Counted from the first letter of the stretch, positions 1-3,969 are shown. The stretch is 64,000 nt of DNA from Elainella sp. Prado103 (GCA_025454395.1 JALOOM010000002.1:62001-126000); one strand, 5' to 3'. The notes: generated from the letters alone by a model not told the origin. Numbers and translations: made by a program.

Positions 1-2
1 AT

Positions 3-173
3 CGGGGCTTGACCGATCATGTCACGATTCGCGGTACGGGTTGCATGAAGCAGTGCAAGGCGGGCCCCAATTTGGTCATGCCTGATAAGTCGCGATATAC
101 TCGCATCCGCCCCGATCAGGTTGCCGGTTTAATCGATCAACATTTTCCCGGTAGTAATGAGATCGCGAGCTGA
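3..173 (+). CDS. C-terminal end of a (2Fe-2S) ferredoxin-domain protein (partial)
   Basis: The frame is open from the window edge to a TGA at 171-173, and the gene starts upstream of the window. The 56 visible residues include GCMKQCKAGPN followed by LVMPDKSRYTRIRPDQV. This resembles the thioredoxin-like [2Fe-2S] ferredoxin domain found in many short cyanobacterial proteins, where the GCM-x2-C cysteines are part of the cluster ligands. The electron partner cannot be inferred. It converges on the 1259-aa gene, with 16 bp between the two stops. The ORF track misses it because no start lies in the window. The family call rests on recalled motif similarity only. Confidence 0.7.
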   Translation, partial: RGLTDHVTIRGTGCMKQCKAGPNLVMPDKSRYTRIRPDQVAGLIDQHFPGSNEIAS

Positions 174-189
174 AACTCTAATGCTACGT

Positions 190-3100
190 TTAATTTATCT
201 CTACGCCTACATGACGTAACAGATATTCTGAGATGAGCTTCAAACTTGTCAGATCTAGAGTAAATGGAACAGAAGGGCTAAGAACAAATCGTTTTTGGGT
301 CATGTTCATCATTGTCGTATAGTCATAAATGAATCCAGATACTCGATCCTCTATCTTTGTTCGAGTTTCAAAGGATTTTGTGCCTCCGGTCACGGGATCA
401 TTTAGCTCAGCAAGACTGTGCCCAAATTCTATTTTTAGAAAAGTGTCGTAAATATCCTCCTTGCTCATTTGAGAAACTGTGGAAATAGCCTCAGATATTC
501 TGATATTTCTTGACTCAACGAAGTGACCAACTACATGGGCAGTGATTCCTGAATCAAGTTGAGCTGGAGGAGACTTGTATTCTAGTGCCAAATGGAGCCT
601 ATCCGATAAATCTCTAAAAGATTCTAACTGTGTAACTTGCTTATCTCTTTCCTGGGTATCTGGCGTTGTTATCCACTCGCTGGGGCGATGTATTGCCCCT
701 AGTGCTGATCCGAGGTCTCCTGTGTAAGTCAAATATGACGGTTCAGAACCCAAAAGGGTACCAAATTGAGCAGAAATAGATGCTAGGAAATGGGCAGTTG
801 GAACCTTCATTCCATTTTCAAGGGGCAGCCATCCCTGAAACTCCTCTAACTCCTCAGCTTTTGCATAGGTAGAGTTAGCTTCTTCATTAATGTTCACAAA
901 AGGCAATCGGTTAACGAGAGGAATACGCCATTTTGTAAATATCTCAAATGAACCGCCCTGATATTTTTCATTTGTTTTTCTTCTCAATGTTTGAGCCGCT
1001 ACATAGGGATCATACTTTCCGGGAATTGTGTCTTCGACATCTCTAATTCTTTCAAGAATATCTCGATGTGTTTCTACATCAAATTTATAGGATTCAGAAC
1101 TAGAAGAGTCAGTATCTGAGAAGCCTGTACTGGAGTCTAGAGGAGCTTGAACAACTCCTTCTTGATAATTCCGAAGGCTAGCCTCATAAAACTCCTTCAA
1201 ATCAGGTAGACTTTTTTCCGGTTGGTTGTACCCCGCCCCTGGAAAGCTTGCCCATTCTCCGGCAACCTTTGCAACTGCGATTTCAAATCTTCCTGCTTCT
1301 ACATCTTCATAAGCTCCACGATTCCTGATCAGTTGCACCGCTGCTAAATCCTGGTTTTGGGGACTGAAATCTGATAAGCCAATCTGTCCACGAACCCCAT
1401 CCCAGGTTCTTTGAATAAACTGATACCGACCTGCCGCTGTCGAGGTTGTATCTCTAAACGGTTCATGAATACGAGGGTGATCGGCAAAACTATCAAACCG
1501 ATCGCCCCCAAATCGGATACGATACCCATCAGGCGCATGGGTTCCTTCAGCATAGGAGATGGTGTCTAAAAATGCCCGCATGTTGTCACTGAGACTGCTG
1601 TTTTGCGTTATTTGCCCAGAGTATTCAGGATAGCTAGAATCTGGAGTTGTACCACCCGGTAGTGCTTCAGCAGATAATCCTGAGCCTACCAACGTTCCGG
1701 TTGAGGGGGAAGTTAGATTATCTGTACGGAACGCTTCTTCCCATGTTCGTTCTCCCACCACACCATCTGCAACCAATCCCTTCTCTGCCTGAAACTGACG
1801 GGCAACTTCAGTACTCTGTTCCCCATAATAACCATCCACTTCAATGTTCCAGCCCCGATCGCGCATCCGTTGTTGCCATCGTTCCACATCGGAGTTGTAG
1901 GAAAGTTCTTGTCCAGGCTCGTAGCGAAAGACTCGACTCGATTCCTCTCCTGTCCCTGCCACACCCACAGGTAACGCCCCACGCGCCACTTCACCCGCAG
2001 GATCAACTTCGTTGCGAGTACTAAATGCTGCCGCCCAGGTCTCAGGCCCAACAATGCCATCGGGAGTCAGGCCCTTTTCTTGCTGAAACTGGCGGGCAAC
2101 TTCAGCGCTATGAGCACCGTACATGCCATCTACAGCAATTTTCCATCCCCGCTCCTGCATCCGCGCCTGCCATTTCTGGACATTGGGATCACAGACAGGC
2201 ATTGTTCCAGGTTCATATTCAAACGGATAGCCTGGATAGGTTGTTCCTTCTACAGCGGTACTGAGATCATTGGCTGCATCTTGCAGAATCTCTGGTATCC
2301 TGCCTGGATCGCTGACAACATCTGAAACTGTTTCCTCGGCCGTATTTCCAACGTTTCTAACAAATTCTTCGACGGGTTCGGGTAATAGTTCAACGATCGG
2401 TTCAGCAACCTGAGCTTTAAACGTATCCCAGCCTGAGCTTGCTGCATCTTTCAGTCCTTCGAGCCAAGCGGGTCGTTCACTGGGAATTGTTGAGCCATTT
2501 TCGTTAAAGAGAAGATCGGGTTGAGTCCCAGATAGGTTCGGGTGGTTCGGGTCGATCTCTGCTCCGCGTCTATCTTCAGCCATTTCGATCGCCCGACCAA
2601 CATGGGGCTGACCCACTCCGGTGAAGGGATCGATTCCAGGCTGCTGTAAATCTGTCGCACTTTGCTGGAGCACCTGAATCACCTGTTGATAGCTGAGGTC
2701 AGGGTTGGCTTGCCAAATTTGTGTGATCGCCCCAGTGACTCTAGCCGCCGATAAAGAGGTTCCTTCCATATCCCCTTGCCCCTGACCAGACGCTACAAAA
2801 TCTATGCCCTCTCCATAGCTAGAGTAGTTGGCTCGTTGTCCATCTTCAGCAGCACCCACTGCAATAATGTTGTCAAACTTCTGAGAAGCTTGCCCTAGAG
2901 CCGACATTTGATCGCCCTGATTGCCGGTGGCAACCACTAAAAGCACGCGATTATTGTGGGCATAGGTGAGGGCTGCATACTCTTCAGGCGTTAATTTATG
3001 GCGGGTGTCCACACTACCATCAGGGTTAATTTGTGTCAGTTCAAAGCTCAGATTGATCACTGCTTGGGATCGCCCAGATGCTTTTGCCGCATCGACAAAC

Positions 3101-3969
3101 TCAATCAATGAGTCTGACCAGTTTCCAGAACCTACACCGATCCCATACCAATCTAGAGGCTGCTGTCCTTTTTGTTCAATCATCTGGGCAACCTGCCTCC
3201 CGTGGCTGTTGCCAGTGAAGTGGGTGTCAATGATTCCAACAAAAGGCGAGTTTTCTTGACGCGGGTGAGTCAATTGAGCTGAACGATGTTGGGACTTTTG
3301 ATCTATACCATTGAGATAACTCTCCTCAAAAAGCTGATTTGCCCATTGTTCTGTGCGGGTTTGGGCAGCTTGGATCGCATCTTCAGCTTGATCAGAGAGC
3401 TTCTGCCCAATTTCAACAAACGTTTCAGTGATCTCCTGAACCTGGGGATTGGCTGCCACATCTTTCCACAGTTGCCTGACCCGTTGCAGCAATTGGGGAG
3501 CCTGCTCTTCCACCCAATGTCGTAATTGATTGTCTGGAGCCTGCCAATCTTCCTGGATGGATTGCACATTTTGGCGCAGCTCTTGTCCGATTTGCGATGC
3601 CACTTCTTCTAGGGCATGGCCAATCATTGGCTTCCCTGCTTCCACTACATCACTAATTTTCTGATAGGCTTTGCCAAGCTGATAAACGGCATAGTCGATC
3701 GGTACAATACCGCTTTCAAACTCATCTCCGTAGAGTGGGCCATCTCCTAAAAACGGTGAACGGGGCAACCCGGTGAGGTCATCGATCCCCTCACTTATTG
3801 CAGAAGAGTTATTATCCCCATGGGTCAAAGTGTCTGCAACTTTTCCTAATGCAGTCGGGTGTCGTTTAGCCGTGTGCCCTAACAACTCCTGCTCTGCTTG
3901 GGAAAGATTGGTCGAGAGTCCGGTTGAGGCATCCAAACCAAGATTCAATCTTGCATCATCTAGGGGCAT
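190..3969 (-). CDS. Subtilisin-like S8 protease / peptidoglycan-binding / GH104 endolysin fusion protein
   Basis: Domains in order over 1259 aa. Residues 1-235: helical region of unknown role without a signal peptide. About 241-440: S8 subtilisin fold with Asp248 (GIIDTH), His256 (NSHGR), oxyanion Asn350 (ATGN) and Ser405 (GTSLSAA). About 595-650 and 693-748: two PG_binding_1 repeats (VDGMYG, VDGYYG; PDGIVGPETW). About 795-930: a domain closely resembling phage lambda endolysin R (GH104 lytic transglycosylase), with SYAEGT (Glu808 as likely catalytic acid), AAGRYQF, LSDFSPQNQD and WASFPGAGY. About 950-1259: unrecognised, rather AT-rich domain. All catalytic residues expected for both enzymes are present. 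The predicted role is cleavage of protein and of the peptidoglycan glycan chain, as a wall-remodelling enzyme or a killing/lysis effector. No secretion signal and no neighbouring immunity, holin or secretion gene are visible. The function as a whole is inference. Confidence 0.85.
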   Translation of the reverse strand: MPLDDARLNLGLDASTGLSTNLSQAEQELLGHTAKRHPTALGKVADTLTHGDNNSSAISEGIDDLTGLPRSPFLGDGPLYGDEFESGIVPIDYAVYQLGKAYQKISDVVEAGKPMIGHALEEVASQIGQELRQNVQSIQEDWQAPDNQLRHWVEEQAPQLLQRVRQLWKDVAANPQVQEITETFVEIGQKLSDQAEDAIQAAQTRTEQWANQLFEESYLNGIDQKSQHRSAQLTHPRQENSPFVGIIDTHFTGNSHGRQVAQMIEQKGQQPLDWYGIGVGSGNWSDSLIEFVDAAKASGRSQAVINLSFELTQINPDGSVDTRHKLTPEEYAALTYAHNNRVLLVVATGNQGDQMSALGQASQKFDNIIAVGAAEDGQRANYSSYGEGIDFVASGQGQGDMEGTSLSAARVTGAITQIWQANPDLSYQQVIQVLQQSATDLQQPGIDPFTGVGQPHVGRAIEMAEDRRGAEIDPNHPNLSGTQPDLLFNENGSTIPSERPAWLEGLKDAASSGWDTFKAQVAEPIVELLPEPVEEFVRNVGNTAEETVSDVVSDPGRIPEILQDAANDLSTAVEGTTYPGYPFEYEPGTMPVCDPNVQKWQARMQERGWKIAVDGMYGAHSAEVARQFQQEKGLTPDGIVGPETWAAAFSTRNEVDPAGEVARGALPVGVAGTGEESSRVFRYEPGQELSYNSDVERWQQRMRDRGWNIEVDGYYGEQSTEVARQFQAEKGLVADGVVGERTWEEAFRTDNLTSPSTGTLVGSGLSAEALPGGTTPDSSYPEYSGQITQNSSLSDNMRAFLDTISYAEGTHAPDGYRIRFGGDRFDSFADHPRIHEPFRDTTSTAAGRYQFIQRTWDGVRGQIGLSDFSPQNQDLAAVQLIRNRGAYEDVEAGRFEIAVAKVAGEWASFPGAGYNQPEKSLPDLKEFYEASLRNYQEGVVQAPLDSSTGFSDTDSSSSESYKFDVETHRDILERIRDVEDTIPGKYDPYVAAQTLRRKTNEKYQGGSFEIFTKWRIPLVNRLPFVNINEEANSTYAKAEELEEFQGWLPLENGMKVPTAHFLASISAQFGTLLGSEPSYLTYTGDLGSALGAIHRPSEWITTPDTQERDKQVTQLESFRDLSDRLHLALEYKSPPAQLDSGITAHVVGHFVESRNIRISEAISTVSQMSKEDIYDTFLKIEFGHSLAELNDPVTGGTKSFETRTKIEDRVSGFIYDYTTMMNMTQKRFVLSPSVPFTLDLTSLKLISEYLLRHVGVEIN

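What the first reader, a model, noticed from the sequence alone, without database searches (positions are those of the whole stretch)
190..3969. S8 protease fused to two peptidoglycan-binding domains and a lambda-R-like GH104 endolysin
One 1259-aa protein combines an intact subtilisin triad (Asp248, His256, Ser405), two PG_binding_1 repeats and a domain very close to phage lambda endolysin (SYAEGT, AAGRYQF, WASFPGAGY). I know of no described cyanobacterial protein with this order. It has no signal peptide, and no holin, secretion or immunity gene lies next to it. It could be a wall-directed effector, a programmed lysis enzyme or a self-processing muramidase. This is the best candidate for an undescribed activity in the window.
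Basis: partly seen in the sequence, partly recalled or inferred. Interest (0 to 1): 0.72.

Follow-up and report, generated by a model that had tools for sequence, protein, structure and literature searches.

The report
Cyanobacterial subtilase–wall-hydrolase toxin-type protein
A filamentous cyanobacterium carries a large protein that fuses a protein-cutting domain, two cell-wall-binding domains, a lysozyme and an orphan tail; its relatives look like a little-known family of modular, interchangeable-tail toxins, several of them sitting next to their own export machinery.

Summary
Window 190-3969(-) is one intact 1259-aa ORF: N-terminal helical domain, S8 subtilase (Asp248/His256/Asn350/Ser405), two PG_binding_1 domains, a GH104 lambda-R-type lysozyme (E = 4e-26, catalytic-Glu equivalent E808), then ~320 aa with no relative anywhere I searched. 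No signal peptide or membrane segment is visible. The order is unique: 1 of 127 distinct proteins with this subtilase carries GH104. The subtilase itself is a distinct family in 53 of 390 cyanobacterial genomes. The window protein falls in a sub-clade with an 8-residue Asp-His spacing (usually ~38), whose members share N-terminal parts but end in unrelated domains: SsdA-type deaminase, CHAP + lipase, GIY-YIG-like, Gly-zipper. A distant homologue of the window's N-terminus carries PT-HINT and EndoU. Eleven of 15 short-spacing loci have a type I secretion ABC/HlyD next door; the window gene does not. Best reading: an exported polymorphic-toxin-type muralytic effector whose subtilase processes the polypeptide. 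Modules and clade are shown; toxicity, autoprocessing and export route are inferred. No immunity gene is adjacent. Verdict: new variant of a known kind (polymorphic toxins). I found no description of this subtilase/T1SS branch in the searchable literature.

The parts
190..3969 (-). 1259-aa protein: N-terminal domain, S8 subtilase, two PG_binding_1, GH104 lysozyme, orphan C-terminus
3259..3969 (-). N-terminal domain aa 1-237 (D-LTGL and YGDEFESG motifs, amphipathic helices), shared with 4 strong relatives; weak matches to others, one of which (L148) carries PT-HINT and EndoU
2515..3258 (-). S8 subtilase domain aa 238-485, short Asp-His spacing clade
   Evidence: AlphaFold2 model pLDDT 82, best PDB matches all subtilisin-like
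3226..3228 (-). catalytic Asp248
   Evidence: alignment
3202..3204 (-). catalytic His256 (8 residues after Asp248, as in all 15 members of the clade that could be typed)
2920..2922 (-). oxyanion-hole type Asn350
2755..2757 (-). catalytic Ser405
2029..2187 (-). PG_binding_1 domain 1 (aa 595-647)
1735..1893 (-). PG_binding_1 domain 2 (aa 693-745)
1183..1590 (-). GH104 lambda-R-type lysozyme domain (aa 794-929)
   Evidence: E=4e-26; E=2.8e-44
1546..1548 (-). Glu808, equivalent of the catalytic Glu19 of lambda endolysin
   Evidence: alignment (lambda SEGT = YAEGT here)
193..1149 (-). orphan C-terminal region aa 941-1259, GC 0.41 against 0.51 for the S8 part
1..173 (+). 3' end of a convergent (2Fe-2S) ferredoxin-like gene, 16 bp from the end of the ORF: there is no immunity gene downstream

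Best explanation
It is a modular, exported, wall-attacking effector of the polymorphic-toxin type. Proposed working: the N-terminal domain serves export, probably through an ABC-type (type I) exporter without a signal peptide. The subtilase is synthesised as part of the polypeptide and cuts it, or an attached partner, around export, as QhpE does before ABC export. The two PG_binding_1 domains dock on the peptidoglycan of a target cell, the GH104 domain cuts the glycan strands, and the orphan C-terminal domain is either a second toxin or a targeting/inhibitory part. Shown by sequence: the domains, the conserved catalytic residues, the clade, the shared N-terminus with exchanged C-termini, and the low-GC C-terminus. 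Inferred: export route, autoprocessing, toxicity, target.
For: Relatives share the N-terminus and subtilase but have different tails: the Oculatella LEGE 06141 protein (L037) aligns over aa 2-504 at 41% and then carries LysM repeats and a Gly-zipper-like tail; L106 has 3 PG_binding_1, CHAP and a lipase-like abhydrolase; L109 ends in SsdA_C deaminase, 3.6e-7. Among 13 short-spacing proteins the last 200 aa are unrelated except for three pairs. A conserved pretoxin-like segment precedes six different tails. L148, which shares the window's N-terminal domain weakly (1.1e-12), carries PT-HINT at 1.2e-20 and EndoU at 4.8e-4, the latter below cut-off. The C-terminal GC of the window protein drops to 0.41 (GC3 0.32) and most relatives show the same drop. 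T1SS ABC/HlyD genes flank 11 of 15 short-spacing loci against 1 of 111 others, Fisher 8e-12, loci not independent. In L114 the adjacent 629-aa gene has the same leader plus GH24 lysozyme and CHAP. The genome holds an orthologous PpiC-ABC pair and a second PpiC-ABC-HlyD operon elsewhere.
Against: The four members of the window's own sub-clade (window, L037, L106, L116) have no T1SS gene nearby, so that link belongs to the sister clade. No immunity gene is adjacent to the window gene. The C-terminal domain has no recognised toxin family. Most of the wider subtilase family has ordinary wall-associated or matrix-type modules (DUF4114, LysM, LGFP, M23), which fit wall remodelling equally well. EndoU-like and GIY-YIG-like tails of L118, L114 and L128 are motif-level only; Pfam did not confirm them. 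The subtilase triad geometry could not be measured.
Confidence: 0.58

Rival explanations
1. It is the cell's own wall-remodelling enzyme (autolysin), for example for filament breakage or septal passage, kept latent by its N-terminal part and activated by the built-in subtilase.
For: Cyanobacterial relatives with the same type of subtilase often end in LysM, LGFP, CHAP or M23 wall modules. No immunity gene lies beside it. Its PG_binding_1 modules are closest to those of stand-alone chromosomal GH24 and VanY-type wall hydrolases. It lies among housekeeping genes.
Against: No other genome searched, including four of the same genus, holds the full architecture. The C-terminus is an orphan and of low GC, unlike a core autolysin. 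The clade also carries deaminase- and lipase-type ends.
Confidence: 0.24
2. [quoted passage not shown]
For: A full eCIS cluster, with an eCIS_core + AHH nuclease protein, is present in the genome. Subtilisin is listed among processing proteases of PVC-delivered polymorphic toxins (PMC3482391).
Against: The protein has no eCIS_core domain, the gene lies on another contig, and sister-clade genes sit with T1SS genes instead.
Confidence: 0.1
3. It is a prophage-derived lysis or tail enzyme.
For: GH104 is typical of phage endolysins and tail lysozymes.
Against: No phage genes were seen near it. No phage record holds the architecture. The subtilase family gave only one weak hit in viral contigs. Closer GH104 relatives are chromosomal.
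Confidence: 0.03

Closest known systems
Polymorphic toxin systems (Zhang et al. 2012, PMC3482391)
   Same: Conserved N-terminal half with exchanged C-terminal domains, built-in protease (subtilisin is listed among processing proteases), PGB1/LysM adhesion domains in some toxins, low-GC tail.
   Different: The passages of the paper's export table that I read list T2SS, T5SS, T6SS, PVC, T7SS and TcdB/TcaC, and the held text has no mention of type I secretion. Here a sister clade is linked to a T1SS and the window gene has no immunity gene.
Lambda endolysin R (GH104 lytic transglycosylase; PDB 1am7, 3d3d)
   Same: The catalytic domain with the SEGT/YAEGT glutamate, AGRYQ and WAS-PGAGY motifs.
   Different: There it is a stand-alone 158-aa phage protein; here it is one module of 1259 aa and lies closer to chromosomal cyanobacterial GH104.
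QhpE subtilisin-like protease of the qhp operon (NF049966; PMC7876137)
   Same: A subtilase family matched at 1.1e-8 by the window protein; QhpE works once on a partner before export by an ABC transporter.
   Different: QhpE is a separate small protein that cuts the QhpC leader; here the protease is fused to wall-active modules.
Oculatella sp. LEGE 06141 protein (L037/L151)
   Same: 41% identity over aa 2-504, same N-terminal domain and short-spacing subtilase.
   Different: Continues with LysM repeats and a Gly-zipper-like tail; a 191-aa gene follows 5 bp downstream.

Membership tests
Peptidase S8 (subtilase) | Profile match and subtilisin fold | tested here: met
   Pfam 1.9e-19; AlphaFold2 model pLDDT 82, top PDB matches all subtilisin-like, TM about 0.6
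Peptidase S8 (subtilase) | Asp/His/Ser triad and oxyanion Asn | tested here: met
   D248, H256, N350, S405, aligned and invariant in the clade
Peptidase S8 (subtilase) | Usual Asp-His spacing and active-site geometry | tested here: inconclusive
GH104 (lambda R type) | Homology to lambda endolysin over the catalytic domain with the Glu in SEGT | tested here: met
   (4e-26, aa 794-929), E808
GH104 (lambda R type) | Lytic transglycosylase activity | not testable with these tools
   needs a zymogram or product analysis
PG_binding_1 | Profile match over cut-off, two copies | tested here: met
   81.6 bits against a cut-off of 23, two stretches
Polymorphic toxin | Shared N-terminal part with exchanged C-terminal domains among relatives | tested here: met
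Polymorphic toxin | Recognised toxin domain at the C-terminus of this protein | tested here: inconclusive
   GH104 is a plausible toxin; the last ~320 aa match nothing
Polymorphic toxin | Adjacent immunity gene | tested here: not met
   3' neighbour is convergent ferredoxin-like, 5' neighbour a mechanosensitive-channel-like gene; L037 and L111 do have small genes 5-16 bp downstream, one DUF4279
Type I secretion substrate | ABC and HlyD genes linked | tested here: not met
   Not linked here; linked in 11 of 15 short-spacing loci, none of them in the window's sub-clade; unlinked operons exist in this genome
eCIS cargo | eCIS_core (PF13699) domain | tested here: not met
   no hit

The most novel reading that the evidence does not exclude
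Filamentous cyanobacteria possess an undescribed class of polymorphic toxins, many of them exported by a dedicated type I system whose C39-like domain appears to lack its cleaving cysteine, in which a subtilase with an unusually short Asp-His loop is part of the toxin and replaces the transporter's missing leader peptidase. The window protein is a version that breaks the target wall itself and delivers a new C-terminal toxin.
Probability: 0.3. Interest if true: 0.75.

Novelty: new variant of a known kind. Interest (0 to 1): 0.55.

Why it matters
Protein-based antagonism among cyanobacteria is little known. The family gives a searchable marker (the short-spacing subtilase plus adjacent ABC/HlyD) for toxin loci in mat-forming genera. 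It raises a testable question: whether a fused subtilase stands in for the leader peptidase of the exporter. The wall-cutting member could be a tool for lysing cyanobacteria, and its orphan tail a new domain.

Tried and rejected
Single-sequence AlphaFold2 of aa 938-1259 gave pLDDT 35 and was discarded. The C-terminus was searched in Pfam, PDB, plasmids, phages, viral contigs, 389 other cyanobacterial genomes and the collected ORFs: nothing; the SLS1_C 0.0043 and T-cell-receptor 0.017 matches are treated as chance. A whole-protein scan of genome contigs returned nothing because its patterns were too specific; the S8 alignment worked. The wider family's HELTH-type metallopeptidase tails (L041, L103, L084) resembled eCIS_core by eye, but Pfam did not support that. 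Prophage origin was rejected. The D-LTGL motif as a secretion signal remains an idea: it is short, and I did not test it statistically.

Full report
What is there. The window lies in a cyanobacterial draft genome of 5.8 Mb (its family also holds Oculatella sp. LEGE 06141), at contig 26, 62001-126000. The reported gene is a single intact ORF, 190-3969 on the minus strand, 1259 aa. Pfam gives Peptidase_S8 (1.9e-19) and PG_binding_1 twice (4.6e-23). The lambda endolysin domain is found by sequence against PDB 1am7 (4e-26, aa 794-929) and by PHROG endolysin profiles (2.8e-44). There is no hydrophobic stretch in the first 60 residues (best 19-residue mean 0.17) and no membrane segment elsewhere.

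Corrections. The GH104 part is not especially close to lambda: phage endolysins reach about 47% identity and chromosomal cyanobacterial GH104 proteins 53%. The finding also missed two regions: aa 1-237, a helical domain shared with relatives, and aa 941-1259, which matched nothing in 389 other cyanobacterial genomes, plasmids, phages, viral contigs, Pfam or PDB. The tail has GC 0.41 (third position 0.32) against 0.51 (0.48) for the subtilase part of the same gene and 0.49-0.58 for 14 other long genes of the window.

The subtilase family. A profile of the S8 domain (A1) finds it in 53 of 390 genomes of the class, in 35 of 160 genera. In the collection of 85,462 species genomes, 121 stretches were confirmed and all 79 listed loci are cyanobacterial. 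I collected 127 distinct proteins. Those whose Asp-His spacing I could read fall into two kinds: mostly 35-46 residues (one at 17), and exactly 8 residues in 15 proteins. The 15 group together on a tree with one protein that could not be typed (100/99 support), and the window protein sits in a sub-clade with L037, L106 and L116 (99/98). An AlphaFold2 model of the window S8 domain on 14 sequences has pLDDT 82, and its best PDB matches are subtilisins (TM about 0.6), so the short loop is compatible with the fold; active-site geometry was not measurable.

Exchanged tails. Members share the front and differ behind. L037 aligns with the window over aa 2-504 and then has LysM repeats and a Gly-zipper-like end. 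L106 has the same N-terminal domain, then three PG_binding_1, CHAP and a lipase-like abhydrolase. L109 ends in SsdA_C deaminase, 3.6e-7. L108 has a Gly-zipper end (below cut-off); L114, L128 and L118 have GIY-YIG-like and EndoU-like ends by motif only, which Pfam did not confirm. Among the last 200 aa of 13 members only three pairs are similar. A pretoxin-like segment (GH-ALD-AG-IPVVG-AD--NA-WY--EGDY-NA) precedes six of the different tails. The N-terminal domain profile (A2) also reaches L148 weakly (1.1e-12); that protein carries PG_binding_1, PT-HINT (1.2e-20) and an EndoU match below cut-off. This is the architecture logic of polymorphic toxins. GH104 occurs in only 1 of the 127 proteins, so the reported order is unique in this survey.

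Export. Eleven of the 15 short-spacing loci have an ABC transporter with a C39-type domain next to the toxin gene, ten of them with a HlyD-family adaptor as well (L120, a contig-edge locus, shows only the ABC and PpiC genes), some with a PpiC-like gene; among the other 111 proteins counted one does (Fisher 8e-12, not corrected for relatedness). By eye the C39 domain lacks the catalytic cysteine (SSAAACLTM or NSAAACLTM where peptidases have DCG). In L114 the neighbouring gene shares the leader (43% over 81 aa) and is a GH24 lysozyme with CHAP. The window's sub-clade lacks linked exporters. The window genome does have an orthologous PpiC-ABC pair (62% identity, contig 32) and a PpiC-ABC-HlyD operon (contig 120), both beside RTX-type proteins, and an eCIS cluster (contig 35). 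Export by T1SS is therefore the favoured but unproven route.

Immunity. The 3' neighbour is a convergent ferredoxin-like gene 16 bp away and the 5' neighbour is a mechanosensitive-channel-like gene (both named by eye from sequence), so no immunity candidate exists here. L037 and L111 do have small genes 5 and 16 bp downstream, the latter DUF4279. This absence is the main point against a classical toxin reading, and with the LysM/LGFP/M23-rich long-spacing relatives it keeps the autolysin rival alive at about 0.24.

Known context. Zhang et al. 2012 (PMC3482391) list subtilisin among processing proteases of polymorphic toxins; the held text does not mention type I secretion. QhpE is a subtilase that cuts its partner once before ABC export (PMC7876137), and its profile matches the window domain (1.1e-8). 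My literature searches found no description of this cyanobacterial family; that covers open-licence papers only.

Verdict. Observation confirmed, interpretation partly supported. The protein is a new variant of the polymorphic-toxin kind with a wall-cutting module. Shown: modules, residues, clade, exchanged tails, sister-clade exporter link. Inferred: function, processing, export, target.

Noticed in passing
own genome contig 35, 22000-41000 (L231): eCIS-type cluster with a CDC48-like AAA ATPase, sheath, tube, VgrG-like, PAAR and gpJ-type genes, and a protein combining eCIS_core (1.1e-31) with an AHH nuclease toxin domain (5.3e-11).
   Followed up: partly
own genome contigs 32 and 120 (L146, L147): PpiC-like + ABC(C39-type) genes on contig 32 and PpiC + ABC + HlyD on contig 120, each beside an RTX-type protein; possible exporters of the finding's protein.
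   Followed up: partly
L114, 10476-12365: 629-aa protein next to a GIY-YIG-like toxin gene has the same leader sequence but carries GH24 lysozyme + LysM + CHAP, as if a wall-opening partner is exported with the toxin.
   Followed up: partly
L103, L084, L041: Long-spacing members end in a conserved HEL(T/A)H(V/I)WQY metallopeptidase-like domain that no Pfam model caught; at least six of 127 family members carry it.
   Followed up: no
L031, L046, L033, L047: Stand-alone PG_binding_1 + GH24 or VanY-type hydrolases share the short D-LTGL motif ahead of the wall-binding part with the window protein; possible common targeting signal.
   Followed up: no
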